A stretch of 64,000 bases of DNA, taken from assembly GCA_031292145.1 (NCBI GenBank), contig JARLHR010000170.1, positions 1 through 64,000 of the forward strand, read 5' to 3'. Shown here one piece after another: positions 10,790 through 62,715 of the stretch; position 1 is the stretch's first letter, and every line of letters starts with the position of its first letter. The notes beneath the pieces are model-generated. The model searched no databases. It was not told the origin of the DNA and saw only the letters and a list, made by a program, of their open reading frames with translations. Source of the stretch: Clostridium sp. (GTDB lineage: Bacteria > Bacillota > Clostridia > Clostridiales > Clostridiaceae). Both the position numbers and the translations under genes were made by a program.

Positions 10790-11069
10790 CCACACTAGAA
10801 GGGGAGTTAGCTCAGTTGTTCAGTGTTGCATTTAGAATATACCTGTTGACATTTCTTCATTAGAAGTTGTTCCATTCCAGCTTGTCACAAAAGTGAAAAT
10901 CGAAATTTAACATTTCGTTCTTCGAACTTTCTCTTTGAGCACTTGCCTTGGGATCAAGCTGAAACGGGTACAACTTCTAATGATAAAAATTCACAGGTAT
11001 ATTCTATAGCAACCGAAATAACAGTGCTAACTCCCTTTCGGTTGGTTGTATCAAAATTTGGGTATCTAC
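10790..11069 (-). repeat. Family P palindromic element, copy 1
   Basis: Nested hairpin. Outer stem GGGAGTTAGC (10802-10811) with GCTAACTCCC (11026-11035); middle stem TAGAATATACCTGT (10833-10846) with ACAGGTATATTCTA (10993-11006); inner stem around AGAAGTTGTTCC...GGGTACAACTTCT. Signature ACCGAAA and the end GATACCC lie at the right, so the element points left, and its end is 5 bp from the stop of the gene at 11074. Here the innermost loop is enlarged, holding an extra small palindrome (CGAAATTTAACATTTCG). Confidence 0.7.
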
Positions 11070-11073
11070 AACC

Positions 11074-11517
11074 TTATTTTCTTGAATATCTCAACTTATT
11101 AATTCCTAATAAATACTTCTTCACGTCATTTTTGTATTCTTGATTAAAGACTATTTTCCTTGCCCCTAAATTTGTTTTATAAGAAACTATGTATTTCTCT
11201 CCTTGATCTGATAATGAATAACTTTCTACCTTATCCCAAGGAGTTACATATGAATTAAATAAGAATCCTTTTTCTGTTATTCCACTCTTATTCCCAACAA
11301 ATACCAGAGGTAATATTGCTATGCACACAATTATATCTTCAATTCTAAAATTATTACCTTCTAGTGTTATTCCAATAAATGCTATTATCATTATTGGTAT
11401 TACTGCTTTAAATTTTTTTCTACCACTAAATATTAGTTTGTTTTTTATATCTTTTACAATAAGTACTATGTCTATTATTGATACAAATATTAATATAAAT
11501 ATTGATGACATTTCCAC
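11074..11517 (-). CDS. Small membrane protein, DUF5673-like
   Basis: 147 residues with three predicted membrane segments (about 5-22, 38-53, 60-76) and a soluble C-terminal part containing GITEKGFLF and TPWDKVESY. These recall the DUF5673 family of Firmicute membrane proteins with a PH-like cytoplasmic domain. Function unknown. It stands alone, and its stop is 5 bp from the end of a family P repeat. Confidence 0.55.
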   Translation of the reverse strand: MEMSSIFILIFVSIIDIVLIVKDIKNKLIFSGRKKFKAVIPIMIIAFIGITLEGNNFRIEDIIVCIAILPLVFVGNKSGITEKGFLFNSYVTPWDKVESYSLSDQGEKYIVSYKTNLGARKIVFNQEYKNDVKKYLLGINKLRYSRK

Positions 11518-11868
11518 TCTTAACTCTCCTAACTATTCAATATTATTATGTAATGATAAATTATAATAACTTACAAATCAACTTATTATATCATATTTTT
11601 TATAAGTTTTCTTTATATAATTTTTTATTCCTAATAAATTATAATAACTAATGTAGGATCTAAATTTATGTGTTAGCACTTGTAGTCTGTTGCCCGATTG
11701 CTAGCGAATATTTACGTATAAAAGAGTGCGATAGGACAATCATTTAAAATCTTCGTGTCTTATATATATTTATAAAATTGCGAATGTAATTCTATTTATA
11801 AGATATTTAGTGTATATATAAATAGAAATTAGGGCTTTCAAAAATGTATTTAGAGAAGGAGGTATTTT
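11518..11868. other. Intergenic region, no recognisable gene
   Basis: 351 AT-rich bases between divergent genes. A 15-base near-repeat (AAATTATAATAACT) occurs at about 11560 and 11637. It presumably holds promoters for both genes but none stands out. No conserved small gene or RNA was seen. Confidence 0.5.
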
Positions 11869-12351
11869 ATGAGGATTAAAAATTGGATAGTTACTATAGA
11901 AAACGTTGACTATAGAATTGAATTCATCTCAAAATTTTATAAGAAGGAATTATTAGTTAATAAAGTCCCTGTGAAACTTGAATTTTCTAAAACTTTTGGC
12001 ATAACTAGAGAAACAATTTTTAAATTAGGAACTACAACAGCTATCTTAGTTAATATCGATAGAAATTCTGATATTGTCATTGATGGTACTTATTTAGATT
12101 CTGGAGAAAAACATATAACTGTAAAAAATATACCTCTTTGGACTTATTTATTTTTAGGATTAATTTTACTTATTTATTTATTTTCTTATACCAGCATTTG
12201 TTCAGCTCTTTTTTCCTTATTGGGATGTTATTTTCTTATTCGAATAAGTATTGAACCCTCTTTTAATTTAAAACAACGTATACTTTTTTGCTTGATAATT
12301 ACTCTCTTATTGCATTTATTCTTTTGGTATGTTTTATTTTTATTAATTTAG
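11869..12351 (+). CDS. Unknown protein, beta-rich N-terminus and membrane C-terminus
   Basis: 160 residues, not recognised. The first 95 look like a cytoplasmic beta sandwich (NWIVTIENVDYRIEFISKF, then GEKHITVKNIPLW), somewhat like FAIM-type domains that follow a signal residue with short strands. Three hydrophobic segments follow (about 84-103, 106-120, 138-158). GGAGG lies eight bases before the ATG, so it is clearly translated. A 51-codon gene follows 40 bp later in the same direction. Confidence 0.6.
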   Translation: MRIKNWIVTIENVDYRIEFISKFYKKELLVNKVPVKLEFSKTFGITRETIFKLGTTTAILVNIDRNSDIVIDGTYLDSGEKHITVKNIPLWTYLFLGLILLIYLFSYTSICSALFSLLGCYFLIRISIEPSFNLKQRILFCLIITLLLHLFFWYVLFLLI

Positions 12352-12391
12352 ACATAATATATATGTACAATATACAAAGGAGATGATTTTT

Positions 12392-12547
12392 ATGGAAAAT
12401 AACAATAAAAGAGATTTTGCTAAAAGCAACGGTTTAAGAAATGGAAATAAAACACAAGGTCAATATGGAAAAAGTAGTTTTAATACAACTATAGAACAGC
12501 CTGGAATTAACGAAAGCGGTGCAGAAGCAAAAAAGAGAGGCTTCTAA
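12392..12547 (+). CDS. Small Asn/Gln/Lys-rich protein, possibly spore-associated
   Basis: 51 codons, starting MENNNKRDFAKSNGLRNG and ending EAKKRGF, with AAAGGAGATG before the ATG and a strong terminator 50 bp after the stop. The residue mix (Asn, Lys, Gly, Gln; no Cys or Trp) and GKSSFNTT/GQYG segments recall small acid-soluble spore proteins of the gamma type, but I cannot identify a defined family. Good translation signals make it likely to be real. Confidence 0.5.
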   Translation: MENNNKRDFAKSNGLRNGNKTQGQYGKSSFNTTIEQPGINESGAEAKKRGF

Positions 12548-12596
12548 TTTTCTTTAATGTACTTTAACTTTCTTTTTAAAATTTAAAATATAATAA

Positions 12597-12655: not shown

Positions 12656-12710
12656 AGTCATATGAAAGAATTTAATATGCTTTAATAAGTATCTCTAAAA
12701 ATACATATTG

Positions 12711-27057: not shown

Positions 27058-28797
27058 ATGAAAAACAGCAAAGGTATCGGCATAAAATTATTTTTGTTGA
27101 TTGGTTTCATCATGATATTTGTGCTAAGTATTACTAGCTTTTCGTATATCACATTTAAAAATTATAATGAAAAAAATAAAGCTAGATTACAAAAAACAGC
27201 AGAATATATAACAATAGTTGATGAATCAAGACAAGCCCAAGTTTCTTTTAAAAAGCAAGTACAAGAATGGAAGGACACATTACTCAGAGGAAATGACATA
27301 GACTCTTATAACAAATACTATTCTCAATTTACACAAGAAAATGAAAATGTTCAAAAGCAACTTTCTACGCTTAAAGACCATATGAAAACGCAAGAATTAG
27401 ATACTTCTTCAGTAGATACATTATTAGCTACTCATAAGGACTTATATAATAAGTATACTGAAGCCATTAAAAGTTATGATTCTAAAAATCCTGAAAGTTA
27501 CCATATAGTAGATAATCTTGTGAATGGTATTGATAGAAAACCTACTGATGATATGGACACTTTAGTAAAGGACATACAAGATAAAGCTAAAGTAGAAAGT
27601 GAAACTATGTTAGCTCAATCTGATATTGATAGTGGCAATTTTTATAAGACTTTAATTAGCATCGTCGTTATAGGGATTATTTTAACTATCTTTTTTGCAA
27701 TATTAATTTCCCATACATATAAGCGTATTACTAAATTCATAGACCAATTTAAAACATTAATGGAACAAGCAGAAATGGGTGATCTTACAATTAGCGGAAT
27801 AATACATAAAAAAGATGAGTTAGGTGAACTTACTGATCGATTTAATAAATTCATTTATACAATAAGAACTTTAATCTCTGAAGCTAATACTGCAACTGAA
27901 ACAGTTGTCTCTTCTTCTAATGATATAATGAGAAACTCTGCTGACGTTAGCAAAACTTCAGAAGAAATTACATGCACTATTTCTAATATGGCAGAAAGTG
28001 CTTCAGAGGAATACAAATTAATTGAGGATAGCAGTAATGCTGTGAAAGCTGTTGCACAAGGGGTAAATCGTATAACAGAAAATACAGTTCATATAATGGA
28101 TCTTGCACATAAGGCAATGATCACAGTAGCTGATGGTTCCCAAAATCTTATCCATCAAATTGATAGGATGTCTGATACAAAAGATGCTTCTCAAAATGTT
28201 AGCACTGTAATTTCAAATTTATCTACTAAGTCAAACGAAATTGGAAAAGTTGTAGAGTTTATCAACGGAATTACAGAACAAATCAATTTATTGGCCTTAA
28301 ATGCTTCAATTGAAGCTGCTAGAGCCGGTGAAGCTGGTCGAGGTTTTACTGTAGTAGCTAACGAAGTTAATAATTTAGCACTACTTTCAAAGGAATCTAC
28401 ACAAAAGATTAGCGATTTAATTACCCATGTACAAGCTGATATAAAAACGGCTGTTATTGAGGTTAATAAGACAAATATTTCAATAGACGAACAGGCCGCT
28501 TCACTTACTAAAACTGATAATTCACTTAAGCTTATCGAAAAATCTGTTTTAGAAGTTACTAGTAAAATTAAAGAAGTTGCTTCTGATACTCAAGGAATTA
28601 ATCAAAATGCTAAGTCTGTAGAACAATCAATTAACAATATTGTAAATATACTTGATCAAGCTACATCAAGTACACAAGAAATTGCTGCTGCAACTGAAGA
28701 ACATTCAGCATCAATTGAAGAAATATCTGCATCTATGGATTTTCTAGTAGAATTATCAAATAATCTACAAAAGACTCTTTCTAAATTTAAAGTATAG
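27058..28797 (+). CDS. Methyl-accepting chemotaxis protein 1
   Basis: 579-residue chemoreceptor. TM1 about 10-32, an extracellular helical sensor (about 33-195, four-helix-bundle type), TM2 about 197-217, HAMP about 218-272, and a long coiled-coil signalling domain. Its hairpin tip is [20 protein letters not shown], where CheA and CheW bind. Glutamine/glutamate pairs on both sides are methylation sites. No che or flagellar genes are nearby. The TAG stop is part of the end sequence TATAGATAC of the family P repeat that follows. Confidence 0.93.
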
Positions 28798-29060
28798 ATA
28801 CTCAAATCTTAATTTATGTAATAGCTAACCGAAATAAGTAACATGTTGTGTTTCGGTTTCTAAGGAATTTAGATGGGTGATTCTAAGAACATAAGTTGTG
28901 CCCAAAAAGCTTGCCTCAAAGACAAGCTTTGAACAAGCATTTTGGAACAACTTATGTTCAAGAATCACAACCATCTAAATTCCTAATGAAACACTACACA
29001 CAACATGTTACTTATTTCTGATGTATCTATTTATTTAAATTTAGTTATAATTCTTATTTA
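28793..29060 (+). repeat. Family P palindromic element, copy 2
   Basis: It begins TATAGATACTC inside the chemoreceptor stop codon. Outer stem ATAAGTAACATGTTGTGT (28833-28850) with ACACAACATGTTACTTAT (about 28998-29015); next stem AGGAATTTAGATGG with CCATCTAAATTCCT; next AACATAAGTTGTGCCC with the GGAACAACTTATGTT arm; inner stem CAAAAAGCTTG/CAAGCATTTTG. ACCGAAA and TTTCGGTT lie on the left, so the element points right. The far end is indistinct. The same outer parts recur at 48105 without the inner stems. Confidence 0.72.
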
Positions 29061-29129
29061 TACCTAACATAAATAAAATACATACTTTCATATATAGATA
29101 TAACAACACTGAACAAGATTTATACTTTT

Positions 29130-29380
29130 AAATATATACTTAACTAGAAAATTAGTGGAATCTTTTGTGCAGGGTGCATTTAGAATATGGCTGTAGGTAT
29201 TTCTTCAGTAGAAGTTGTTCCATTTAAACTTGTCCTAAGCTCGTCTTAGGAGCAAGTTTAAATGGTGCAACTTCTGCTGATAGAAATCCACAGTCATATT
29301 CTATAGCATCCCGAAACAAAAGATTCCACTAACTTTCGGTAGTATATATGAAAAATATAGTTCACTAGTTTGATATCTAT
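29130..29380 (-). repeat. Family P palindromic element, copy 3
   Basis: Outer stem TTAGTGGAATCTTTTGT (29152 onward) with the complement ending CCACTAA near 29333; middle stem TAGAATATG.CTGT with ACAGTCATATTCTA; inner TAGAAGTTGTTCCATTTAAA against TTTAAATGGTGCAACTTCT. The terminal end TGATATCTATA (29371-29381) supplies the TAG stop of the leftward pmbA gene. It faces copy 2 tail to tail between convergent genes. Confidence 0.72.
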
Positions 29381-30678
29381 ACACCTGCAACAGTTACATT
29401 TAATAATTTAACTACCTTTGGTCCTTCAAAATTATTATGTTTTTCAATCTCCTTTGATAAAAACATTTGATTTTGTAATTCATTTATATTTCCTGATATA
29501 GAACCACCTGTAACAGGTATTGTGTCTTTACCATCAAAATACCATGCAAGTCTTATTTCTCCGCAAAAGTCTCCTGTTAGTTCATCCATTGTAAAATCAG
29601 AAAATGCTGCTGCTTCAATATATGGTTCTGCTTTTAATTCCTCAATAGTTTTACTGCCACTAGAAACTACTATGTTATTAATTGAACCTGTTGGTTCTAC
29701 ATTTAAATAATGAGCATATCTATTATCTGCAATGTATCTTTTTAACACACCATTTTCTACTATAGTAACAAGCTCTAAAGGAAATCCATCTCCATCAAAA
29801 CTTGCTGAACATGTTGAATTTTTCATAAATGGATCAAGAGTCATTGTAATAAGATCCCCCTTAACCTCTTCTCCTTGAATTTTATCTCCAACTTTCCATG
29901 TAGATTCATTTTTATAAATTGCAATTGCACTGCTCTTTGAGTAATAAAAAGAAAATAAATCCTGTACCGATTTACCAGTAAATAAGACAGAAGCTTTTTC
30001 AACACTCGGAGTACTTTTTGCTATTGCCTTATCTCTACATATTTTAATCATATTTTCTACTTCTCGAGCTACGCCTTCTACGTCTAACTCTGAGAAATTT
30101 AAACACTTGTAGAGTTCAACCTCTTCGCCGTCCTCTTGCCAAGTAGTAATGAATTCAACCATGCACTCATACCCTAGAGACTCTGCATCTACTCCTTCTG
30201 AATTTACAATATGAGTATATACTTTATTTAAAAAAATCTCACAGGAGTTAATTCCACCTTTTTCATAATTATCATTTATATAAACTGCCTTTGTCACTTC
30301 ATTAATCCAATAATGTAAATTTTCTTTTGAAAATTCACTAGGTGCCATTGATTTGTATTTTGATACTGGTTTTACTAAAGGATAATAAGGGTTTTTAGCA
30401 TATTGTGCTGCAAACAAAGCTTCATTTATTGCTTTGTCTATTTCTTCATTACTCATTGTCGGATGAATATTTGTTGTTGCTAACCCCTTATACTTTTCTC
30501 CGTTTTCTTCAATATCCTTATATACTGTTACTTTAAAATGCTGTACATCTTTTGCTCTATCCATATCAACATTCTTTTTTATAAAGAAAAGTTCAATTGC
30601 CTCAACTTCATTTTCAACAATCTTATATCCATTAATATTTTTATTATCTTTAAGAATTTGTTTTATTTTATCTAACAT
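29377..30678 (-). CDS. pmbA: TldE/PmbA-type metalloprotease partner
   Basis: 433-residue protein of the U62/PmbA family. With TldD it forms a heterodimeric protease that in Escherichia coli degrades unfolded peptides and matures microcin B17. This subunit lacks the HExxxH metal motif, as expected for TldE. Conserved blocks: TTNIHPTMSNEEIDKAINEA, GDGFPLELVTIVENG, SGNINELQNQM. The start at 30678 overlaps the tldD stop by one base (TAATG). The final TAG lies in a family P repeat end, so the last residues may have been altered by insertion. Confidence 0.85.
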   Translation of the reverse strand: MLDKIKQILKDNKNINGYKIVENEVEAIELFFIKKNVDMDRAKDVQHFKVTVYKDIEENGEKYKGLATTNIHPTMSNEEIDKAINEALFAAQYAKNPYYPLVKPVSKYKSMAPSEFSKENLHYWINEVTKAVYINDNYEKGGINSCEIFLNKVYTHIVNSEGVDAESLGYECMVEFITTWQEDGEEVELYKCLNFSELDVEGVAREVENMIKICRDKAIAKSTPSVEKASVLFTGKSVQDLFSFYYSKSSAIAIYKNESTWKVGDKIQGEEVKGDLITMTLDPFMKNSTCSASFDGDGFPLELVTIVENGVLKRYIADNRYAHYLNVEPTGSINNIVVSSGSKTIEELKAEPYIEAAAFSDFTMDELTGDFCGEIRLAWYFDGKDTIPVTGGSISGNINELQNQMFLSKEIEKHNNFEGPKVVKLLNVTVAGV

Positions 30679-35237: not shown

Positions 35238-36044
35238 ATGAAAGAAAACTCACATCTTAATGCAAACAGATTTTTAGGCTTTGCTGATATTTATGAGAAT
35301 GCACGTCCTAAATGCCCTGAAAAAGTTAAAGAAATACTATTAAAATATTTAGGAAAGGCTCCATCCCTAGTAGTAGATTTAGGATGCGGTACAGGCCTTT
35401 CTACAACAATTTGGAGTGAAATAAGCAATAAGGTTATTGGAATAGAACCAAGTAGAGATATGATTAAAATAGCAAGAGAGAAATCCTCCACTTTAGATAA
35501 TGTGACTTTTCTTTCTGCCTTTTCAGATAACACTGGATTAGAGAATAATTCTGTTGATATTATTACCTGCTCTCAATCCTTTCATTGGATGAATCCAAAA
35601 ACAACTTTAAATGAAGCCTCAAGAATTTTAAAACAAGGTGGTATCTTTGCTGTTTATGATTGTGATTGGCCACCAGTATGCGATTGGCAAGCAGAACAAG
35701 AATACGAAAACCTTTTTGAAAAGGTAAATGAAATTGAATCTCTTACTCCAAATCTTAAGGATAAATTTTTTAAATGGAATAAAAATAATCATCTTTCAAA
35801 CATAAAAAATAGCGATAATTTTAGATATGTGAGAGAAATAGTTTTTACAAATACTGAAATTTGTAATGCACATAGGTTTATTTCAATAGCCTTGAGTCAA
35901 GGTGGACTACAATCTCTCATTAATAACAATATAGAAGAAATTAATATACCTTTACTAATGTTTAAAAATAGAATAATGGATATTTTTCGCGATAATAAAT
36001 TTGAAATAGATTTTTGCTATCGTATGCGTCTTGGAATTAAGTAA
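35238..36044 (+). CDS. Class I SAM-dependent methyltransferase
   Basis: 268 residues. Motif I VVDLGCGTGLST (about 43-54), motif II GIEPSRDMIKIARE and post-II SQSFHWMN place it in the class I fold, nearest to UbiE/MenG-like and trans-aconitate-like methyltransferases. Acceptor unknown. AGAAAGGATG lies before the ATG. Its TAA is followed directly by TATAGATACCC, the end of a family P repeat. Confidence 0.85.
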   Translation: MKENSHLNANRFLGFADIYENARPKCPEKVKEILLKYLGKAPSLVVDLGCGTGLSTTIWSEISNKVIGIEPSRDMIKIAREKSSTLDNVTFLSAFSDNTGLENNSVDIITCSQSFHWMNPKTTLNEASRILKQGGIFAVYDCDWPPVCDWQAEQEYENLFEKVNEIESLTPNLKDKFFKWNKNNHLSNIKNSDNFRYVREIVFTNTEICNAHRFISIALSQGGLQSLINNNIEEINIPLLMFKNRIMDIFRDNKFEIDFCYRMRLGIK

Positions 36045-36334
36045 TATAGATACCCAGTTTAAGAACTAGGCTTATGCAATAGCCTACCGAAAGTACGGGT
36101 ACTCTGTTATTTCGGTTACTAAGAGAATGAATTGTGGATTTCTATCAGCAGAAGTTGCACCATTTCTGCATGCTCCCAAGGCAAGCTTGTGACAAGCAAA
36201 AATGGAACAACTCCTGCTGAAGAAATACCTACAACTCATTCTCTAATGTAACACTGCATAAAAGAGTACCCGTACTTTCTGATATGGTATATATTTCAAA
36301 GTATAAATCTAATTCATGGTTTGTTTATCTATAG
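36045..36334 (+). repeat. Family P palindromic element, copy 4
   Basis: It starts TATAGATACCC immediately after the methyltransferase stop and ends near TATCTATA at 36326-36333. Outer stem GTACGGGTACTCT (36093-36105) with AGAGTACCCGTAC (36263-36275); next AGAATGAATTGT with ACAACTCATTCT; next ATTTCT.TCAGCAGAAGTTG with its counterpart; inner CCATTT.TGC with GCAAAAATGG. ACCGAAA and TTTCGGTT are on the left. Confidence 0.75.
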
Positions 36335-36445: not shown

Positions 36446-36759
36446 TATAGATATCCAAATTAAGAGATTGATTTATAGCTGGAAATATATACTTATAATT
36501 CGCCATGTTTAGGTGTGTATCCACACAAAGAACTTAGATAAATATGTGCGAAATAGGCATTTGAAAATGAGCTGTTGAAGGTTCTTAATAGGTGGTTGTT
36601 CCAATTTAGCTTGTCACATTGAATAATGGGAGCATGCTAAATTGGGTGCAACCACCTATTTAGAACCTTTCAGCGCAATTTCATAGTCCTATGGAACACA
36701 TATTTATCTAAGTTCGGTTGGTTAACACATAAGTTAAGAATATATGTTGGGTATCTATA
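36446..36759 (-). repeat. Family P palindromic element, copy 5 (complete ends)
   Basis: The best preserved copy: left end TATAGATATCCAAATTAAGA, right end the complement of TATAGATACCCAACATATAT, so the terminal inverted repeats are about 15 bp. Outer stem CTTAGATAAATATGTG (36533-36548) with CACATATTTATCTAAG (36697-36712); next GGTTCT.AATAGGTGGTTG with CAACCACCTATTTAGAACC; inner AATTTAGC/GCTAAATT. It belongs to the subfamily with GCAGGACTATGAAAAT-like bases beside the outer stem. It faces copy 4 between convergent genes. Confidence 0.75.
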
Positions 36760-42759: not shown

Positions 42760-42933
42760 TTTTATCACCTCAGATATTTTATTTAGATTAAACTTTAAAT
42801 TACAATGTAGATTTACTTGAATCTATATTTGTATTTTAATCATGAATTGTCACAGTTTTGTTACAGTCTAATCACAAATTATGTACAATTTATAAATATC
42901 CAATATGTATTATAAACTTATGTGTATTACTAC

Positions 42934-42966
42934 ATTAGAAATAAGTAACATGCTGTGTTCCGATTT
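42934..42966 (+). repeat. Solo outer-arm fragment of a family P element
   Basis: ATTAGAAATAAGTAACATGC then TGTGTTCCGATTTA closely matches the left arm of copies 2 and 48105 (ACCGAAATAAGTAACATGTT then GTGTTTCGGTTT). No complementary arm is found near it. It lies 24 bp before copy 6. Confidence 0.55.
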
Positions 42967-42989: not shown

Positions 42990-43206
42990 AAATTATTTAC
43001 CACACTAAGGGAGCGAACTCTTTTGTGCAGTGTTGTATTTAGAATATGGCTGTAGACATTTCTTCATTAGAAGTTGTTCTATTTCCGCTTGTCACAAGCT
43101 TGTCTTGGGAACAAGCGGAAATAGGTATAACTTCTAATGGTAGAAATTTACAGACATATTCTATAGCAACCGAAACAACAGAGTTCACTCCCTTTCGGTT
43201 TGATAA
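42990..43206 (-). repeat. Family P palindromic element, copy 6
   Basis: Outer stem GGGAGCGAACTCT (43009-43021) with AGAGTTCACTCCC (43180-43192); middle TAGAATATGGCTGT with ACAGACATATTCTA; inner CATTAGAAGTTGTT...TATAACTTCTAATG and CTATTTCCGCTTG/CAAGCGGAAATAG. ACCGAAA/TTTCGGTT lie on the right, so it points left, with its end 20 bp from the stop of the binding-protein gene at 43226. Very similar in design to copy 1. Confidence 0.72.
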
Positions 43207-43225
43207 ATAATAAGTCTATTTAATT

Positions 43226-44389
43226 TTATTCAGGTTTTATAGTATCAAGATAAGTAAACTTACCGTCTTTAACTACTTTTAATACCGCATCTTTTACTGC
43301 ATTATTATTTTCATCTATTGTTATTACTCCTGCTGCACCAGGAAAGTCCTTAGTCTTTGCAATCTCATCTCTAATTTTCACTGGTTCTCCAGAATTAGCT
43401 CTCTTAATAGCATCTAAAATAACTATATATGCATCATAACCTAATGCTGTAGCCGCTGCTGGTTCCTTATTATATTCTTTTCTGTATTCATCTAGAAAAA
43501 TCTTAGACTCTGAAGTTATAGGTGTTTCACTTGCAAAGAAAGTTGAGAACACTGTACCCTCTACATCCTCTTTTCCTATATCTAAAAATTCTGGTGTTTC
43601 CCAAGTATCGCCACCAATTATAGGAGCTGTAATCCCAAGCTGCCTTGCCTGTTTTATTATCATAGCACCTTCTGTGAAGTTACCTGGAGCAAATATTACA
43701 TCCGGATTACTGCTCTTTATATTTGTGAGTTGAGCTGTAAAATCTTGATCTCCTGTAGTATAGTTTGACTTAGCTACAATAGAATTATTGTCACCTGTTA
43801 ATTTTGTAAATTCATCAATAAAGAATTTACAAATACCAACTGAGTAGTCACTAGAAACTTCCTGAAGTATTGCCACTTTTTTAGCCTTTAGCTTATTAGC
43901 TGCATATTTTGCCATAACAGTACCTTGAAAAGGATCAATAAAACAAACTCTAAAGTAATAATCATTTCCTGCAGTTACTAACGGATTTGTACATGTAACC
44001 CCTACTGCCGGAATCTTAGCTTCTTGTACCATATCACCTGCTGCCATGGATAATCCACTACCATAACTTCCTATAATAGCATTAACATGTTCTTGTTCAA
44101 TAAGATTTGCAGCTGCACTGGCTGCTTCTACTTTATCCGACTTATTATCTGCAAAAACTAATTCCACCTTTTTGCCAAGAACTGTCGGATAAATTTTATT
44201 TGCAAGCTTGGCACCCTCAGCCTCGAGTTCTCCACCTGCCGCATTAGCACCTGTCATTGGTTCAAACACCCCAATTTTTATAACATCGTCATTCATATTT
44301 GCTTTGGTGTTTGCTTTGGAAGCACAACCTGCTAGCGCAAAAGTAGTTGTTATAGCTAGTATCAAAAGTAAAGATATTTTCTTCTTCAT
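43226..44389 (-). CDS. Branched-chain amino-acid-type ABC substrate-binding lipoprotein
   Basis: 387-residue type I periplasmic-binding-fold lipoprotein of the LivJ family. Lipobox LAGC with the lipidated C22; conserved blocks KIGVFEPMTGANAAGGELEA, GSYGSGLSMAAGDMVQEAKI and ALGYDAYIVILDAI. It would capture branched-chain or related amino acids outside the cell. The permease and ATPase genes normally beside it (livHMGF) are absent: the neighbours are the glycosylation operon and a CPBP protease. So it is an orphan that works with distant permeases or as a sensor. GGGGGATT lies before the ATG. Confidence 0.88.
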   Translation of the reverse strand: MKKKISLLLILAITTTFALAGCASKANTKANMNDDVIKIGVFEPMTGANAAGGELEAEGAKLANKIYPTVLGKKVELVFADNKSDKVEAASAAANLIEQEHVNAIIGSYGSGLSMAAGDMVQEAKIPAVGVTCTNPLVTAGNDYYFRVCFIDPFQGTVMAKYAANKLKAKKVAILQEVSSDYSVGICKFFIDEFTKLTGDNNSIVAKSNYTTGDQDFTAQLTNIKSSNPDVIFAPGNFTEGAMIIKQARQLGITAPIIGGDTWETPEFLDIGKEDVEGTVFSTFFASETPITSESKIFLDEYRKEYNKEPAAATALGYDAYIVILDAIKRANSGEPVKIRDEIAKTKDFPGAAGVITIDENNNAVKDAVLKVVKDGKFTYLDTIKPE

Positions 44390-46343: not shown

Positions 46344-48095
46344 ATGAAAAAAACAGAAAAAACTATTAATTTTAAAAAATTAGGAAAGGTACATGAACTC
46401 AAGGTTATACATTCTTTTATTATTATGCTACTCATATCAATAGTAAGTTTAAGCACTCTAGCATCTATTGGAATTAATAGTTTAAAGAATACCCGAATAC
46501 AAGAAAACGTTTTATACGAAGATTTATACTCTCCTACCTCTGCTATATTAAATGCTAAAGCTACATTTTATAATTTAAGGGCTAATTACGTAAAAATATT
46601 AGACTCCTCTACTTTTAATGATAGTGTTTATAATTCTGTCGTCAAATCTAGGGATTTACTTGCAGCTTCAATAGATTTATATAATACGGATAATATTGAC
46701 GATAAAACAGACCTAGATAATATAAATAATTTAAAAGAAAAAATCAAAAAATATAATCAAGACACAGAAAAACTAATACAAGATAAAAATTTAACCGGAA
46801 CCTATGATAATGATGAAAGAAATAGAGTAAACTCTGATAGTACAGCAATAGTTGAATTAATGACTGATATGGCTAACTATAATGACGAACAGTGCACACA
46901 ACTCATAAGCAAAACCAATACTGAACTTAAAAATAATATTATTATTTTTTCCATTATCTCAGTAGTTGCTGTTATTATTTTAGGTTCTTTAGCTATAATT
47001 CAAATTTTTAAACTTCGTTATAAATTTAAGGCTATAAATGAACATTGTAATAAAATAACAAGTGGCGATTTAACTAGTGATATATCAGAGAAAGTTTTAA
47101 ATTCAAGAGATGAAATTGGAGATATGGCTAGAGCTATAAACTTTATGACAGTTTCGGTTAAGGATGTCATGAAAAATATAATAAACGAATCTGAACATCT
47201 TGAAGAAATTTCATATTCAACAAAAGAAAGTATGCTTAATCTAAATACAGAAGTTGAAAAAGTATCTGCTTTTACCGAAGATTTAACTGCAACTTCTGAA
47301 GAAACTGCTGCTACAGCTGAAAACTTAATACATACTGCCAATAATATAAAAGATGAAGTAAATTTAATAGCTGATAAATCCTTAGAAAGTGTTGATACCT
47401 CTTCAAAAATTAGTCAAAAAGCTAGTGAATTAAAAAATAATGCTGTAAATTCGAAAAATTCTACTATTAATATTTATGAACTAACTGAAGAAAAATTATT
47501 AAATGCCTTAGAAAAATCTAAAGAAGTAAACAAAATAACTGTTCTTTCTGATTCTATCTTACAAATTGCTTCACAAACTAATTTACTTGCATTAAATGCA
47601 GCTATTGAAGCCGCTAGAGCTGGAGAAGCTGGAAGAGGTTTTTCAGTTGTTGCTGAGGAAATCAGAAAACTGGCTGAAACCTCACAGTCAACTGTTGCAG
47701 AAATACAGGCTGTGACTGCCAATGTAGTAGACTCAGTTAATAATTTATCTAATAGTTCTACAGAGCTTCTTAACTTTATAAATACTGATGTTATAAAGGA
47801 TTATGACTTCTTTGTAATCTCTGGTGAAGAATATAATAACAACGCTGTTTCACTTAATAAAATAACCTCCGAATTTAATTCATCTTCAGATAAATTAAAC
47901 TCCTCAATGGAAATAATATTAAATTCTATAAGTGAAATTGCAACTGTAAATGAGCATTCAGCTACAGCTACACAGGATATTTCACAAAAAATCTTTACTG
48001 TTTCTGAAAAAGCCTCAAATGTTGTTCAAAAAACTTTAGAAGTTAAAGAAACCTCTGAAAGACTTGTACAAATATCAAATAAATTCAAAATTTAA
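46344..48095 (+). CDS. Methyl-accepting chemotaxis protein 2
   Basis: 583-residue chemoreceptor. A charged N-terminal extension of about 25 residues precedes TM1 (about 27-48); a helical extracellular sensor runs to about 190, TM2 about 192-214, HAMP, then the signalling coiled coil with tip [25 protein letters not shown] precedes the ATG. Sequence outside the tip is not close to the receptor at 27058, but both are followed by nearly the same family P outer arms. No che genes are near. Confidence 0.92.
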
Positions 48096-48104
48096 ATTTA
48101 TGAA

Positions 48105-48180
48105 ATAGCTAACCGAAATAAGTAACATGTTGTGTTTCGGTTTCTAATGAAACACAACATGTTACTTATTTCTGATGTAT
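48105..48180 (+). repeat. Family P element lacking its inner hairpins
   Basis: ACCGAAATAAGTAACATGTT then GTGTTTCGGTTTCTA is followed at once by ATGAAACACAACATGTTACT then TATTTCTGATGTA. Both halves and about 60 bases beyond match copy 2 (28828-28862 and 28985-29060) almost exactly, but the roughly 120 bases of inner stems are missing. The join occurs at a CTA that is present at both edges of the inner part in copy 2. Confidence 0.75.
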
Positions 48181-48317
48181 ATATTTACTTAAATTTAGTT
48201 ATAATTCTTATCTGCACTTAACATAAGTTAAATCCATAAATTAGATAAATATTTTATTAATTATACTTATCAGTATAGTACATTTACATATTTACTTTAC
48301 TTTACTTTGAGTCAATA

Positions 48318-48516
48318 ACTACATCAGAAATCAAATACATTTATGTGTAGCAGGCATTTGAAAATTTCGATGCTAAAAGCACTTAGAGGTAGGTTGTTCC
48401 ACTTTCGCTTGTCCAACCGAATGGTTGGAGCAAGCCAAAGTGGATGCAACCTACCTCTTAGTGCTTTCAGCGAAATTTTCATAGTCCTGCGTAACACAAA
48501 TGTATTTGATTTCGGT
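48318..48516 (-). repeat. Family P palindromic element, copy 7
   Basis: Outer stem ATCAAATACATTT.TGTG (from 48330) with CACAAATGTATTTGAT (48496-48511); next ATTTGAAAATTTCG with CGAAATTTTCATAGTCCTG; then GCACT.AGAGGTAGGTTG with CAACCTACCTCTTAGTGC; inner CCACTTTCGCTTG/CAAGCCAAAGTGG. ACCGAAA is at the right end, 40 bp from the nfnB stop. It belongs to the same subfamily as copies 5 and 8. Confidence 0.72.
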
Positions 48517-48554
48517 AAGTTGCCACTCAACTCTAGATTACATGTTGTACTATG

Positions 48555-49943
48555 CTATTTGCTTAAGTATTTATCTATAGCAGCTGCTGCTTTCTTTCCT
48601 GCTCCCATTGCGAGTATAACAGTTGCAGCACCTGTAACTGCATCTCCACCGGCATAAACGCCTTCTTTTGTTGTTAATCCATCTTCATTGGCAACTAAAC
48701 ATGCTCTCTTATTAATTTCCAAACCTTTAGTTGTTGATGAAATTAATGGATTTGGTGATGTCCCAAGAGACATTATTACTGTATCTACGTCTAAAACAAA
48801 CTCAGAATTTTCTACTTCTACTGGTTTTCTTCTTCCTGAAGCGTCTGGTTCTCCAAGTTCCATTTTAACGCATTTCATTCCTTTAACCCATCCATTTTCA
48901 TCTGTTACGATTTCTGTTGGATTTGTTAAAACATCAAAGATTACGCCTTCTTCTTTAGCATGATGTACCTCTTCTGCTCTAGCTGGAAGTTCTGATTCAC
49001 CTCTTCTATAAACGATGTGAGCTTCTGCGCCAAGTCTTAATGCAGTTCTTGCTGCATCCATAGCAACATTTCCTCCGCCAACTATAGCAACTTTTTTACC
49101 TGCTCTAACTGGAGTATCATAGCCTTCTTTGAACGCTTTCATTAAGTTTACTCTTGTTAAAAATTCATTAGCTGAAAATACTCCATTTGCATTTTCTCCT
49201 GGTATTCCCATGAACTTTGGAAGACCCGCTCCTGATCCTATAAATACAGCTTCAAAGTTTTCATCTTCAATTAATTCATCTACAGTTATTGTTCTTCCTA
49301 TAATTACGTTAGTTTCAATTTTCACTCCTAACTTCTTTATGTTTTCAATTTCAGCTTTAACGACTTCATCTTTTGGTAATCTAAATTCAGGTATCCCATA
49401 AACTAAAACCCCGCCTGCTTCATGTAAAGCTTCAAATATAGTTACATCATAACCTCTTTTAGCTAAATCCCCTGCACATGTAAGTCCAGCAGGACCACTT
49501 CCTATAACAGCAACTTTCTTTCCTTTAGATGGTTCTCTATCTGATAAATCTACATTATTCTTTCTTGACCAGTCAGCAGTGAACTTTTCTAATTTTCCTA
49601 TAGCTACTGCTTGCCCTTTTATTCCAAGTACACACTTACCTTCGCATTGGTTTTCTTGTGGACATACTCTACCACAAACTGCTGGTAATGCACTGTATTT
49701 TGCTATTTCTTTAGCTGCGCCTTCAAAATCTCCAGTCTTAGCTTTTGCAATAAATCCAGGAATATTAACTGATACTGGGCATCCTTCAACACACTTTGGA
49801 TTTTTACAATTTAAACATCTATTTGCTTCTTTTACAGCTTTTTCTTCATCGTATCCTAAACATACTTCTTTAAAATTCTTAGCTCTTACTTCCGGAGCTT
49901 GCTCAGTAACAGGTGTTCTTTTCATTCTTTCTTGCATATCCAT
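48555..49943 (-). CDS. nfnB: NADPH-binding subunit of ferredoxin:NADP transhydrogenase (NfnB)
   Basis: 462-residue flavoprotein. In the NfnAB complex it couples reduction of NADP+ to oxidation of NADH and reduced ferredoxin by electron bifurcation. Cysteine motifs in the first 100 residues (CLNCKNPKCVEGCPV; CGRVCPQENQCEGKCVLG) hold [4Fe-4S] clusters; FAD motif VIGSGPAGLTCAGDLA and NADPH motif VGGGNVAMDAARTAL follow. The same fold serves as the glutamate synthase small subunit, but no large subunit is present and nfnA lies 4 bp upstream, which decides the call. ATG at 49943 follows AAGGGGG. Confidence 0.92.
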   Translation of the reverse strand: MDMQERMKRTPVTEQAPEVRAKNFKEVCLGYDEEKAVKEANRCLNCKNPKCVEGCPVSVNIPGFIAKAKTGDFEGAAKEIAKYSALPAVCGRVCPQENQCEGKCVLGIKGQAVAIGKLEKFTADWSRKNNVDLSDREPSKGKKVAVIGSGPAGLTCAGDLAKRGYDVTIFEALHEAGGVLVYGIPEFRLPKDEVVKAEIENIKKLGVKIETNVIIGRTITVDELIEDENFEAVFIGSGAGLPKFMGIPGENANGVFSANEFLTRVNLMKAFKEGYDTPVRAGKKVAIVGGGNVAMDAARTALRLGAEAHIVYRRGESELPARAEEVHHAKEEGVIFDVLTNPTEIVTDENGWVKGMKCVKMELGEPDASGRRKPVEVENSEFVLDVDTVIMSLGTSPNPLISSTTKGLEINKRACLVANEDGLTTKEGVYAGGDAVTGAATVILAMGAGKKAAAAIDKYLSK

Positions 49944-49947
49944 TATT

Positions 49948-50838
49948 TTATTTATCCCCCTTGCACCCACAACCACCATGGTTATGAGTATTTCCTTCTT
50001 CAAGTTGTAGCATTGCTTTTCCTTCTTCTGTCTTATACATTGTTTGTCTTCTCATTGATTCATCATAATTTACTAAGTGTCCATCAAATTCTGGTCCATC
50101 AACACAAGCAAACTTAACTTCGCCTCCAACAGTCACTCTACAAGCACCACACATACCTGTACCATCAACCATTATTGGATTTAAACTTACTGTAGTTGGA
50201 ATATTTAATTCTTTAGTTAACATTGATGTAAATTTCATCATTATCATTGGTCCTATTATAACAGCATGTGTGTATTTTTTGCCTTGATTGTTAACTAAAT
50301 CCTTAAGCATATCTGAACCAGTTCCTTTGAATCCATATGAACCATCATCAGTTGTTACATAAAGATTTCCTGAAACGGCTTTTAATTCTTCTTCATATAT
50401 TAATAAATCTTTATTTCTGCTTCCTAAAATAACATCTACATCTATTCCATTTTCATGCATCCATTTCACTTGAGGATATACTGGAGCCGCTCCAACTCCC
50501 CCTGCTATAAATAAAATATTTTGCTTCTTTAATTCTTCTAAATCCTCATGAATAAATTCACTTGGTACACCTAATGGACCAACGAAGTCAGAAACATAAT
50601 CGCCTTCATTGAAAGTAGCTAATTGTTTAGTTCCTTTTCCTATTGTTGCAAAAACTATAGTCACTGTCCCTTTTTTCACATCATAATCAGCTATTGTTAA
50701 AGGTATTCTTTCACCTTTTTCATCATTTTTTATAATTATAAATTGACCTGGTTTTGCTGATTTAGCAACTCTAGGTGCTTCTATATCCATTAAGAATATG
50801 TTATTTGTAAGTTCTCTTTTACTAACTATTTTGTACAC
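49948..50838 (-). CDS. nfnA: NADH-binding subunit of ferredoxin:NADP transhydrogenase (NfnA)
   Basis: 296-residue ferredoxin-reductase-fold subunit. It binds FAD, the bifurcating-side NAD and a [2Fe-2S] cluster: FAD region GQFIIIKNDEKGERIPLTIAD (about 33-53), NAD loop FIAGGVGAAPVYPQ, cluster cysteines in DGTGMCGACRVTVGGEVKFAC. Length and motifs match clostridial NfnA. Electrons from here pass to NfnB, encoded 4 bp downstream. NADPH made by this pair would supply the alcohol dehydrogenase upstream if that enzyme uses NADPH. GGGGGAAG precedes the ATG. Confidence 0.92.
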   Translation of the reverse strand: MYKIVSKRELTNNIFLMDIEAPRVAKSAKPGQFIIIKNDEKGERIPLTIADYDVKKGTVTIVFATIGKGTKQLATFNEGDYVSDFVGPLGVPSEFIHEDLEELKKQNILFIAGGVGAAPVYPQVKWMHENGIDVDVILGSRNKDLLIYEEELKAVSGNLYVTTDDGSYGFKGTGSDMLKDLVNNQGKKYTHAVIIGPMIMMKFTSMLTKELNIPTTVSLNPIMVDGTGMCGACRVTVGGEVKFACVDGPEFDGHLVNYDESMRRQTMYKTEEGKAMLQLEEGNTHNHGGCGCKGDK

Positions 50839-60640: not shown

Positions 60641-60655
60641 GTGTTCCCTCTTTCT

Positions 60656-60716: not shown

Positions 60717-61721
60717 CATTGATATATTATTAAATAAATCTACACTATACTTTTGTATATCTAATAGGTTTTCCATATTATATTTTTCTTTGATTCCTTT
60801 AAAATACTCAGAAATTAAATTTTTTTCTATTATTGCACTATAATCATTATCTTCGAAGTCATTTTTATTAATTATACTTGTTCTAGTTAACATCCATGGT
60901 GCTTCATTTTGAGTCATTTGTCGTAATATTTTTTCACTATAACAGCCATAAAATTTTATTATACTCTCAACAACGTTTCTTTCTACATTATCTAATTTTA
61001 ATTTATTATTAGCTAATATACCTTTATTTGCGTCTTCATACCCAAATCTTTCATATCTTTCTAATACACTTCTATAAATAGGCCCACTTATAAAAGCTTC
61101 ACAATCTTCTTCAAAAAGAAATTTATTGGTAAAAACGTAATAAAAAGATTGTATATAATATAATAATTTATGAAGAGTAAATTGTGTAAAATCTTCACAC
61201 CTAATTAATAGATATTTAATTACAGCATCAATTTTTTCCTCCGTATTATCTTTATTTAAAATCTCTTTAACTGCTTGTCTGCTTTTATTATAATCAACAG
61301 GACTTATTCTTTCTTTATTGCTTTGTAATAAAATCAAATAATAATTTGGATTTGAATATATTTTTTCAAGAATATCATTATGTGAATCTTCAACCATATC
61401 TCCATCTAAGTATCTACTAATGGTTTCACTTTTCCATCCTAACAATAAGGATAGTGCGTAGTCATTAATGCAATATTTAATTATGATACGATGCACTTCT
61501 ATAACGCTTATTATCTTATGCTTTTTTTTATATTCTTCGTATAATTTTTTTAAATTATAATCACATACATCAGATACAAAAATTATATTTTCACATTTAT
61601 TGCAAATAGCTTCTCTCGCTCTATAATTCAATTCTTCATCATTTAATATTGATATTTTATTTATTTTATGTACTTTGTATTCATTTTCTTTCATACAATA
61701 TTCACAGAAAGATTGCTGCAT
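60714..61721 (-). CDS. Panacea/SocA-type antitoxin-like protein with zinc finger and HTH
   Basis: 335 residues in three parts. A YgiT/MqsA-like zinc finger with C6, C9, C40 and C43; a Cro-like helix-turn-helix (ALSLLLGWKSETISRYLDGD, about 93-112); and a C-terminal Panacea (DUF4065/SocA) domain (about 170-300) with TLHKLLYYIQSFYYVF, EAFISGPIYRSVLERYERFG and the NEAPW motif. Panacea proteins neutralise varied toxins or act as proteolytic adaptors. The candidate partner is the gene upstream, from which it is separated by a 160 bp family T element. GGAGG precedes the ATG. Confidence 0.82.
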   Translation of the reverse strand: MQQSFCEYCMKENEYKVHKINKISILNDEELNYRAREAICNKCENIIFVSDVCDYNLKKLYEEYKKKHKIISVIEVHRIIIKYCINDYALSLLLGWKSETISRYLDGDMVEDSHNDILEKIYSNPNYYLILLQSNKERISPVDYNKSRQAVKEILNKDNTEEKIDAVIKYLLIRCEDFTQFTLHKLLYYIQSFYYVFTNKFLFEEDCEAFISGPIYRSVLERYERFGYEDANKGILANNKLKLDNVERNVVESIIKFYGCYSEKILRQMTQNEAPWMLTRTSIINKNDFEDNDYSAIIEKNLISEYFKGIKEKYNMENLLDIQKYSVDLFNNISM

Positions 61722-61761
61722 GAAATTCCCCCTCCTTTAACTTGAAGCTAATTACTGCTAT

Positions 61762-61923
61762 TTAGGGATCTTCAAAAAAATAACTATTCAGATTCTGGTC
61801 TATTTTGTGCTATGCTTCATCACCACAACCCTTACATAGCTCGCTATGCGCGGGTTATGGTTCTTCGCCTAGCGCAAAATATCCTAAGAACCTTTGACTT
61901 GTTATTTTCTTTCAGATTCCTTA
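61762..61923. repeat. Family T element with a palindromic GC-rich core
   Basis: Ends TTAGGGATCTTCAAAAAAAT and the complement of TTAAGGAATCTGAAAGAAAA. The core (about 61798-61884) is a large hairpin unlike other T cores: TTTTGTGCT/AGCGCAAAA, then AACCC/GGGTT, then CATAGC/GCTATG at the tip. It lies between the Panacea gene and its candidate partner, and the right end encodes the partner's last six codons (KESERK) and stop. Confidence 0.65.
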
Positions 61924-62318
61924 AAAACATATGTAATTGGCTTATTTCTTTTATGTAATGAGACCAATATTCTATATTCTCCACAATCGTTGCATATTAT
62001 ATTGAATTTCATATAAATATCAAGTAATTCCATCTTATCTTCAATATTATATAGTTCCTTTTGCACACAAAACACATAAAGATTATTTTGCTCTACTCCA
62101 TCTTTCATATTTTGTAATCCATAACAAAAATCCTTATAATCTAAACTATATAAAATGTTTATACGTTTTTTTTCATTTATATTATATTCCTCAATAAATT
62201 GAATGTTTTCTAATTTGTTTTCCTCTAAAGAAACTGTAAATTTATTTTCCCGAACACAATCTTTAATAATTTCTACCAAATTCTTAATTTGTTCCTCGCT
62301 ATAATCCTTTAATAACAC
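61902..62318 (-). CDS. Unknown protein, candidate partner of the Panacea gene
   Basis: 138 residues, not recognised. Mixed alpha/beta, acidic N-terminal helix (LKDYSEEQIKNLVEIIKDCV), no membrane segment, and a C-terminal NIICNDCGEYRILVSLHKRN then KPITYVF. Its place just upstream of a Panacea gene suggests a toxin role, by the usual two-gene layout, but no toxin fold is evident. The start is uncertain: GTG at 62318 follows GAGGTGGTGGAG; an in-frame ATG 19 codons upstream has no ribosome site. The final residues are encoded by a family T repeat end. Confidence 0.5.
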   Translation of the reverse strand: MLLKDYSEEQIKNLVEIIKDCVRENKFTVSLEENKLENIQFIEEYNINEKKRINILYSLDYKDFCYGLQNMKDGVEQNNLYVFCVQKELYNIEDKMELLDIYMKFNIICNDCGEYRILVSLHKRNKPITYVFKESERK

Positions 62319-62406
62319 TATCTCCACCACCTCGCATACAAAATGCGTTACAATAATATAACAAAAGGTTATCATTTTAAACTATTTGTGTCAATAAAGG
62401 CCAATA

Positions 62407-62715
62407 TATAGATACCCTATGCAGTAATTAGACTTATGTGGTGATTTACCGAAATCAGAAATATTTTTGTTTCGCAGGACTATGAAAATGTCGCTGAGGG
62501 TTCTAAGTAGCAGGTTGTGCCCACTTTAGCATGATCCCACTTTTAGCGGGACAAGCTAAAGTGGAACAACCTTCTACTAAGAACCCTTAACAGCTCATTT
62601 TCAAATGTCTGCTGCACAAAAATATTTCTAATTTCTGGTATAAGTATTCATCCATAATCTCGCAATTATGTGTAGATGTTTATTAATAAATCTATTTCTT
62701 AAATTGGATATCTAT
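62407..62715 (+). repeat. Family P palindromic element, copy 8
   Basis: Left end TATAGATACCC, right end TTAAATTGGATATCTAT, giving terminal inverted repeats. Outer stem AGAAATATTTTTGT (62457-62470) with ACAAAAATATTTCT (62616-62629); then GGACTATGAAAATG against CATTTTCAAATGTC; AGGGTTCT.AGTAG.AGGTTGT with its counterpart; inner CCACTTTAGC.TG/CA.GCTAAAGTGG. ACCGAAA on the left, pointing right. This is the only copy without a same-direction gene end at its left: it lies upstream of the gene at 61902, with the thioester gene's 3' end at the other side. Confidence 0.75.

What the first reader, a model, noticed from the sequence alone, without database searches (positions are those of the whole stretch)
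10790..62715. A family of long nested-hairpin elements with covarying stems and conserved unpaired signatures
Eight near-complete copies (10790, 28793, 29130, 36045, 36446, 42990, 48318, 62407), one internally deleted (48105) and one fragment (42934) share a plan but not stem sequence. From the ACCGAAA side: variable stem, TTTCGGTT or a GCAGGACTATGAAAAT-like block, two more variable stems, then GTTGYRCCC-stem-GCWTGMTCCC on one arm opposite GTTGTTCCA-stem-CTTGTC on the other. Outer stems are unrelated yet each is complementary: GGGAGTTAGC/GCTAACTCCC, GTACGGGTACTCT/AGAGTACCCGTAC, CTTAGATAAATATGTG/CACATATTTATCTAAG. Such compensated change with fixed mismatches means that a folded form (RNA, or single-stranded DNA) is under selection. 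Two subfamilies exist. I know no named element with this plan.
Basis: partly seen in the sequence, partly recalled or inferred. Interest (0 to 1): 0.88.

Follow-up and report, generated by a model that had tools for sequence, protein, structure and literature searches.

The report
Mobile hairpins parked after bacterial genes
Hundreds of copies of a long folded hairpin sit just behind the stop codons of genes in certain Clostridium bacteria, carried there by small transposons of two unrelated kinds, which suggests a jumping module that becomes the tail end of ordinary gene messages.

Summary
Covariation survives a tree-based, substitution-matched null: in subfamily A, 16 column pairs beat all 60 null alignments and all 16 lie on the hairpin diagonal. 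The units are MITEs, mostly 282-316 bp, with inverted repeats TATAGATATCCAA/TTGGATATCTATA, TA duplications, an empty site in a near relative and a matching IS630-type transposon. About 240 copies are estimated here; 19 of 68 genus genomes score. Copies stand at stop codons in the sense direction: 115 sense-only against 8 antisense-only of 199 loci. The bias follows the gene, not replication, where testable (24 near-stop loci), and is stronger in copies with decayed repeats. Relatives (G022, G039) carry a related hairpin in a second MITE with other ends and 8-bp duplications, matching an IS1595-family transposon. The hairpin is thus separable from its transposon. Most likely it acts as a 3'-UTR structure in the mRNA; this is inferred. 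Against it: G-U changes are not favoured over A-C. Closest known: RUP, Correia/NEMIS, BOX, ERIC. New variant of a known kind.

The parts
10790..11070 (-). Copy E1, subfamily C, with a longer tip (inner spacing 91 instead of about 40). Left inverted repeat TGTAGATACCC at 11060-11070; gene 11074-11517 (-) has its stop at 11074, 3 nt away.
28793..29092 (+). Copy E2, subfamily B. The TAG of its left repeat TATAG is the stop codon of the MCP gene 27058-28797. Right end decayed or overlapped by E3, so the high boundary is approximate.
29093..29381 (-). Copy E3, subfamily C, 289 bp; its left repeat supplies the stop of gene 29377-30756 (-, PmbA/TldD C-terminal domain)
36045..36333 (+). Copy E4, subfamily C, 289 bp; begins at the base after the stop of methyltransferase gene 35238-36044
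36446..36759 (-). Copy E5, subfamily A, 314 bp, both repeats recognisable; 63 nt and a terminator-like hairpin separate it from the stop of gene 36823-37710 (-, nucleotidyl transferase)
42891..42955 (-).
   Evidence: read by eye; one search found a right repeat at 1 mismatch beside E6
42990..43225 (-). Copy E6, subfamily C, left repeat decayed; the stop of gene 43226-44389 (-, periplasmic binding protein) lies 25 nt before ACCGAAA. Boundaries approximate.
48096..48190 (+). Copy E9, subfamily B with the inner part deleted; follows the stop of gene 46344-48095. High boundary approximate.
48290..48560 (-). Copy E7, subfamily A, both repeats decayed; adjoins the stop of gene 48555-50003 (-, pyridine nucleotide oxidoreductase with Fer4_20). 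Boundaries approximate.
62407..62716 (+). Copy E8, subfamily A, 310 bp; the one near-complete copy in the window without a sense gene upstream

Best explanation
These are non-autonomous transposons (MITEs) that carry a folded cargo. SHOWN: the outer unit is an IS630-type MITE (13-bp inverted repeats, TA duplication, an empty site, a related 1.2-kb element with IS630-type open reading frames in another host). The cargo is a hairpin of about 200 nt with variable compensated stems and fixed internal loops. A related hairpin is carried in other Clostridium genomes by a second MITE with different ends and 8-bp duplications that matches an IS1595-family transposon. Copies lie at stop codons in the sense direction far more often than in the other. 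INFERRED: transposases act in trans on the repeats. Insertions in the short stretch between stop codon and terminator are tolerated or favoured in one direction, so the hairpin becomes part of the 3' UTR of the upstream mRNA. There the long interrupted duplex most likely fixes the fate of the message's 3' end (a block to 3'-5' exonucleases and/or a regulated RNase III site), as proposed for NEMIS, ERIC and BOX. Over time the flanking repeats decay and the stop codon comes to lie close to the hairpin base; at one site close relatives can hold a different hairpin type, an inverted block or a hairpin deletion.
For: Repeats, TA and empty site: (68 of 84 copies with recognisable repeats read TA...TA). 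Partner: L181:858-2058 has the same ends and two overlapping ORFs with HTH_33/HTH_29 and DDE_3. Covariation. Position: 109 of 163 left ends within 45 nt of a sense stop against 17 of 163 right ends near an antisense stop; 115 sense-only v 8 antisense-only of 199; with the element removed in silico, 34 of 57 copies have a sense ORF near and in 27 of these the natural stop lies -24 to +10 nt from the insertion. Gene rather than replication: 8 of 24 near-stop copies point against replication (origin assumed at coordinate 1). Age trend: near sense stop 14/36 with intact repeats, 37/51 intermediate, 39/53 decayed, null 15%. Transcribed: right flanks hold a terminator-like site in 10 of 38 near-stop copies with both repeats, like gene ends (59 of 298) and unlike random sites (13 of 300). 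Hairpin outlasts the repeats: Watson-Crick pairs 0.93 (28 intact) v 0.88 (42 decayed) in A, 0.94 (4) v 0.95 (13) in B. Second chassis.
Against: One-sided changes do not favour G-U over A-C (95 v 127; pair-type counts 109 v 130 terminal and 37 v 57 internal; 9 v 8 in orthologues). Orthologous hairpins in G065/G008 differ by 1.9% (43/2220) against 3.0% for the rest of the element (35/1186), so constraint at single sites is weak; the flank figures there (5.4% and 9.4%) are inflated by misaligned stretches. The sense bias is already present in the youngest copies (14 sense v 1 antisense, 17 neither, of 32), so targeting at insertion is not excluded. 23 of 57 copies with both repeats have no sense ORF near. 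Five of ten copies further from the stop lie behind a terminator-like site and may not be transcribed. No transcript data were available. The host of the window has no PF13358 match.
Confidence: 0.55

Rival explanations
1. The fold acts at the DNA level: a cruciform or single-stranded hairpin bound by a host or transposon protein (supercoiling, replication or mobility), with stems kept for that reason.
For: A-C and G-U one-sided changes are about equal, as expected if both DNA strands matter; the second-chassis copies examined fold as a palindrome from end to end.
Against: Orientation follows the gene and not replication, and near-stop copies lie upstream of terminator-like sites at the usual frequency, which points to transcription. 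Minimal MITEs with either pair of ends and no hairpin exist, so the hairpin does not seem needed for mobility.
Confidence: 0.2
2. No function for the host: the copies are parasites tolerated at gene ends, and arm complementarity is kept by a mutational process (template switching or mismatch repair inside the extruded hairpin).
For: Wobble neutrality; loss of the hairpin's inside, an inverted two-copy block and a change of hairpin type between close relatives; tolerance downstream of genes was the view taken for pneumococcal repeats (PMC3049150, sections 6 and 9 read).
Against: Internal loops and mismatches stay fixed across three subfamilies and partly across two chassis, which arm-to-arm correction should erase; compensated changes on terminal branches are isolated (190 of 202 runs are single pairs) and not tracts; neutral tolerance does not predict a 115:8 sense bias at the stop codon.
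Confidence: 0.2
3. The element is mainly a portable transcription terminator or attenuator for the upstream gene.
For: Sense position directly after the stop; long stable hairpin.
Against: By eye no long U-tract follows the stem in the consensus of A, B or C (not scored), and terminator-like sites persist behind near-stop copies at the usual gene-end frequency.
Confidence: 0.07
4. A Y1/HUH (REP-, IS200/605-like) or integron attC-type recombination site used as single strand.
For: Imperfect hairpin with conserved unpaired bases.
Against: The unit has terminal inverted repeats and target duplications of 2 bp or 8 bp, and DDE transposases with matching ends were found. No attC or RAYT model was run.
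Confidence: 0.02

Closest known systems
RUP (Streptococcus pneumoniae, IS630-Spn1-related MITE)
   Same: IS630-type inverted repeats, TA target, no transposase, stop codons in all six frames, 108 intergenic copies (PMC2229807, passages seen)
   Different: [quoted passage not shown] no covarying cargo hairpin shared with another transposon family was mentioned in what I read
BOX elements (S. pneumoniae)
   Same: Highly folded repeats; in 36 cases BOX supplies the stop codon at the extreme 3' end of a gene, and some are transcribed as 3' extensions (PMC3049150, section 9)
   Different: Modular boxA-boxB(n)-boxC architecture; ends compared with ISSpn2
Correia/NEMIS and ERIC elements
   Same: MITEs whose transcripts fold into hairpins and affect neighbouring mRNA via RNase III or a putative RNase E site (passages)
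   Different: Correia 107 or 155 bp, ERIC shorter too (recalled); no compensated stems described in the passages seen; different hosts and ends
REP/BIME
   Same: Palindromes in hundreds of copies
   Different: 20-40 bp units linked to Y1 (RAYT) transposases (abstracts in a search listing); no such inverted-repeat/duplication ends (recalled)

Membership tests
IS630-type MITE (kind to which RUP and Correia belong) | Terminal inverted repeats like those of an IS630-family element | tested here: met
   TATAGATATCCAA / TTGGATATCTATA; L181:858-2058 has the same ends with HTH and DDE_3 ORFs
IS630-type MITE (kind to which RUP and Correia belong) | TA target duplication | tested here: met
   68 of 84 copies with recognisable repeats read TA...TA; empty TA site in G008 opposite a G065 copy
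IS630-type MITE (kind to which RUP and Correia belong) | Short, no transposase of its own | tested here: met
   57 copies with both repeats measure 274-342 bp, too short for a transposase
IS630-type MITE (kind to which RUP and Correia belong) | Partner transposase in the same genome | tested here: not met
   PF13358: 0 matches in G000 and G030; found in 6 of 13 hosts searched, matching ends seen in G065 only, L180-L192 examined. The claim is therefore for the family, not for a current partner in the window's genome
IS1595-type MITE (second chassis, relatives only) | Ends and 8-bp duplications as in an IS1595-family element | tested here: met
   GGCTATGTTTTA ends; 12 of 17 G022 copies with both ends show flanking 8-mers agreeing at 7 or 8 places; three long elements L301-L303 with identical 8-bp duplications; DDE_Tnp_IS1595 in the two examined, L302 and L303
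Known structured RNA family (Rfam 15) | Score at or above gathering | tested here: not met
   0 matches in the window; around E4/E5 at E<=5 17 matches, mostly miRNA/snoRNA-like hairpins and rli51, all far below gathering
REP/RAYT or IS200/605 element | Transposition without target duplication | tested here: not met
   Target duplications present
BOX element | boxA-boxB-boxC modules | not tested
   No BOX model was run; architecture compared from PMC3049150 only
RNA regulatory 3'-UTR element | Transcribed with the upstream gene and alters its mRNA | not testable with these tools
   Only indirect: sense position at the stop and upstream of terminator-like sites

The most novel reading that the evidence does not exclude
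A mobile structured-RNA cassette: one hairpin module that has been captured by two unrelated transposon families, spreads by hundreds of copies, turns over in place (type, direction, loss), and is repeatedly domesticated as the 3' UTR of bacterial genes, so that many messages of a genome end in variants of one transposable regulatory fold.
Probability: 0.33. Interest if true: 0.85.

Novelty: new variant of a known kind. Interest (0 to 1): 0.66.

Why it matters
Palindromic MITEs at gene ends are known, but usually as small parasites with incidental folding. Here the fold is measurably conserved through compensated change, a related form is shared by IS630- and IS1595-type carriers, and copies stand at stop codons in one direction. 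That makes an old question testable: do bacterial interspersed repeats become working parts of mRNAs? The hosts include Clostridium beijerinckii, a solvent producer, so transcript 3' ends and stability could be read directly. Rapidly changing stems around fixed loops also make a natural data set on what a fold needs.

Tried and rejected
Free-standing RNA family: rejected as sufficient, because inverted repeats, TA duplications and an empty site were found.

Replication-strand (lagging-strand) insertion: near-stop copies follow the gene, 8 of 24 against replication. Origin at coordinate 1 was assumed, not tested.

Selection visible as G-U preference: tested and not found. In one search my one/two-sided label was faulty (a boolean sum), so I use only its pair-type counts; one search repeats the count correctly.

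First covariation null had too few substitutions (3090 v 4182 in A); one search replaced it with a matched null, 16 instead of 27 pairs. The matched null was run for A only.

Regex-based swap test mis-anchored the 3' strand (own complementarity 6.3 of 16 in A) and is discarded; redid it on alignment columns for A only (166 rows).

IS630 copies of G051: ends do not match. ISL3 (PF01610) as partner of the second chassis: two broken matches in G022, not pursued, since IS1595 elements with matching ends were found.

Plasmid and phage collections: no match to one copy, E5. Literature: searches listed no paper that I could see describing these elements in Clostridium; only open-licence PMC full text was searched and lists were capped, so absence in print is not shown.

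Rows dropped: 199 of 220 loci had enough flank; 140 loci had 700 nt flanks; 157 of 167 copies were full-length. G065/G008 orthologues are counted twice. For decayed copies the left end is placed by offset from the core.

Corrected on checking: my first reading of L246/L274 rested on strand labels alone; one search shows the real picture, a block of two copies inverted between the same flanks.
Full report
WHAT WAS CHECKED. The eight near-complete copies, the internally deleted copy and the fragment are in the window as stated. The core pattern GTTGYRCCC-N4-12-GCWTG occurs 125 times in it and its reversed control 0 times. In 842,555 bases taken from element-rich contigs a covariance model of the inner core (R1, 107 nt) gave 156 matches on both strands; a palindromic copy is often matched twice. 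I carried 78 loci on. Scaled by the pattern count (40 of 125 there) this gives about 244 copies per genome; it is an estimate.

WHO HAS IT. R1 scores at E<=0.001 in 19 of 68 genus genomes and in 5 of 116 genomes sampled over the family, of which one (a single weak match, G179) lies outside the genus. Counts per genome are capped by the search (57, 33 or 150 candidates) and can hold both strands of one copy; with the cap at 150 both G008 and G065 reach it. A strict pattern hits 9 of 147 relatives and, in named genomes, Clostridium beijerinckii HUN142, C. chromiireducens DSM 23318, Clostridium sp. LS and a Bacillota MAG, 9 stretches in all. One copy had no match in the plasmid or phage collections.

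COVARIATION. RNAalifold on 62 cores predicts 27 pairs, 21 with changes on both sides that keep the pair. To allow for relatedness I simulated null alignments on a FastTree tree with column rates tuned so that substitutions matched (4969 observed, 4960 null). In subfamily A (166 distinct rows) 16 pairs exceed the highest value of all 60 null alignments and all 16 fall on the hairpin diagonal. A first null with too few substitutions gave 27 pairs, 26 of them on the diagonal. Pairing with the own partner is 0.84/0.82/0.90/0.81 in four helices against 0.64/0.55/0.70/0.55 with another copy's partner. Compensated changes on terminal branches are mostly single pairs (190 of 202 runs), so they are not copied tracts. 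Subfamilies B (21 rows) and C (15 rows) gave 2 significant pairs each.

WHAT THE UNIT IS. Copies end in TATAGATATCCAA and TTGGATATCTATA, often followed inward by TTAGACTTAT and ATAAGTCTAA (read from the alignment). Of 84 copies with both repeats at 3 mismatches or fewer, 68 read TA...TA. G065 and G008 are about 95-97% identical over most aligned pieces; one copy of G065 has an uninterrupted site in G008, TTAAT-TA-ATATT, and a second (L259/L266) is absent from G008. PF13358 (DDE_3) matches lie in 6 of 13 hosts and not in G000. In G065 one such element, L181:858-2058, has the same inverted repeats, HTH_33/HTH_29 in its first ORF and DDE_3 in its second, the two overlapping as in frameshifted IS630 elements (recalled); it stands between two hairpin MITEs. 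MITEs of about 75-96 bp with the same ends and no hairpin exist, so the hairpin does not seem needed for the ends to work.

A SECOND CARRIER. In G022 R1 finds copies at 40-82 bits (27 loci looked at). Of 25 examined for ends, 17 have GGCTATGTTTTA...TAAAACATAGCC within 3 mismatches and 12 of these show flanking 8-mers that agree at 7 or 8 places. The end pattern (one mismatch allowed) occurs 130 times in G022, 274 in G039 and 56 in G005, all genomes with R1 matches, and 0-5 times in the other 65 genus genomes. Five G039 copies of 223-224 bp and two G022 copies of 225 bp with these ends carry the GCWTGYTCC tip motif and fold end to end. Three elements of 1.9-2.2 kb with the same ends and perfect 8-bp duplications were fetched; the two whose ORFs I searched encode DDE_Tnp_IS1595. 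A hairpin-free 100-bp version exists here too. Homology of the two hairpins rests on R1, which was built without any G022, G039 or G005 copy, and on shared motifs seen by eye; convergence is not fully excluded.

WHERE THEY SIT. Using simple ORF calls, the left end lies within 45 nt of the stop codon of a gene in the same direction in 109 of 163 loci, and the right end lies within 45 nt of the stop of an opposing gene in 17 (11 shared). In a larger set, 199 of 220 loci with enough flank, 115 are sense only, 8 antisense only, 10 both, 66 neither (orthologous loci of G065/G008 counted twice). With the element taken out in silico, 34 of 57 copies with both repeats have a sense ORF nearby and 23 do not; the natural stop lies -24 to +10 nt from the target TA in 27 of the 34. 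In many decayed copies the stop codon lies a few to some 45 nt before ACCGAAA (by eye). In the window 6 of 8 near-complete copies adjoin a sense stop, one (E5) lies 63 nt behind it after a terminator-like hairpin, and one (E8) has none. Right flanks of near-stop copies hold a terminator-like site in 10 of 38, as gene ends do (59 of 298), against 13 of 300 random sites. So most near-stop copies probably lie inside the transcript. Where replication direction could be assigned, 8 of 24 near-stop copies point against it. G022 copies show the same lean: 20 of 27 with a sense stop in the search range against 9 with an opposing one (ranges 140 and 200 nt).

AGE. Sorting by decay of the repeats, copies near a sense stop are 14/36 (intact), 37/51 and 39/53 (decayed) against 15% expected for TA sites. 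Sorting by nearest relative, 14 of 32 young copies are near a sense stop and 1 near an opposing one; young against older differ with p = 0.017. So there is bias at or soon after insertion and more with age. In decayed copies the hairpin is still paired, and substitutions on terminal branches are 5.4% in paired, 7.3% in loop and 16.3% in outer columns; the last figure is inflated by flanks that are no longer homologous.

RESULTS AGAINST AN RNA ROLE. Changes that turn a pair into G-U are not commoner than those giving A-C: 95 v 127, while in the outer columns the matching rates are about equal or lean to the G-U side; 9 v 8 between orthologous copies, where hairpins differ by 1.9% and outer parts by 3.0%. 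A folded sense RNA should tolerate G-U better. Either selection on single pairs is weak, or the structure matters in both strands.

CHANGE IN PLACE. Of 16 G065 loci with both flanks found in G008, 11 have the same hairpin and 5 do not. The five: L265/L272, a subfamily A hairpin in G065 where G008 has C, between the same stop codon and the same downstream remnant; L246/L274, a block of an A and a B copy that is inverted as a whole between the same flanks; L260/L267, an A copy in opposite direction, next to a degenerate copy seen only in G065; L261/L268, the inside of the hairpin lost in G008; L259/L266, copy absent from G008. From the G008 side, L270/L263 shows the inside of the hairpin lost in G065. 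In G000 and Clostridium sp. LS the same gene ends in a B and an A hairpin at the same spot. Whether type changes are exchange or loss and new insertion is open; either way they explain part of the 'unrelated yet complementary' stems.

PRIOR WORK. RUP is an IS630-type MITE with TA target (PMC2229807, passages). BOX supplies stop codons at 36 gene ends and can be transcribed as a 3' extension (PMC3049150, passages, sections 6 and 9 read). Correia/NEMIS and ERIC transcripts are described as cleavage sites for RNases (passages). I saw no description of the Clostridium elements in searches.

VERDICT. Confirmed observation; a new MITE family with a conserved, separable hairpin cargo. The 3'-UTR role is the best reading of position and direction but is inferred and faces the wobble result. 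The sense bias could still be targeting at insertion.

Noticed in passing
L281:1352-1457 and upstream, L309:813-1105, L020 near 1500, L061 near 12173-12284: Another small repeat (...ACTCGACTC...GAGTAAGTTCGAGG...GGACTCTCACTTAAG) has inserted into the hairpin near its CTTAAG loop in several copies and in at least three genomes (G000, G022, G039); possibly a further element that targets the hairpin.
   Followed up: no
L042:18510-18585, L060:14873-14947, L311:565-664, G043:C1:3859605-3859700: Minimal MITEs of about 75-100 bp with the ends of either carrier and no hairpin.
   Followed up: partly
L302:250-942 (-), L303:270-1088 (-): The IS1595-type elements carry a second gene beside the transposase; in L302 it matches Peptidase_M24, a passenger gene. 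The L303 one was not searched.
   Followed up: partly
L246:1420-2040 and L274:1975-2560: A two-copy block (A and B, head to head) is inverted as a whole between the same flanks in 95-97%-identical genomes, as if recombination across the shared inverted repeats flipped it.
   Followed up: partly
G000 contigs C13, C23, C61, C102, C137, C153, C169, C187, C188, C215 (ends): Several copies lie within about 150 bases of a contig end, so this repeat probably broke the assembly.
   Followed up: no
window 28825-28860 and 29010-29022 (copy E2): ACCGAAA can pair with the nearby TTTCGGTT or with the distant TTTCTGAT after the 3' arm; two exclusive folds of the hairpin base look possible.
   Followed up: no
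L072:10380 (G000) and L174:13604 (G030); L105 (G060) and L230 (G051): What looks like the same gene carries a hairpin at its end in two species, so some sites are either old or hit repeatedly.
   Followed up: partly
window 62778-63383 (-): Gene with a Pfam thioester domain (TED) next to copy E8.
   Followed up: no
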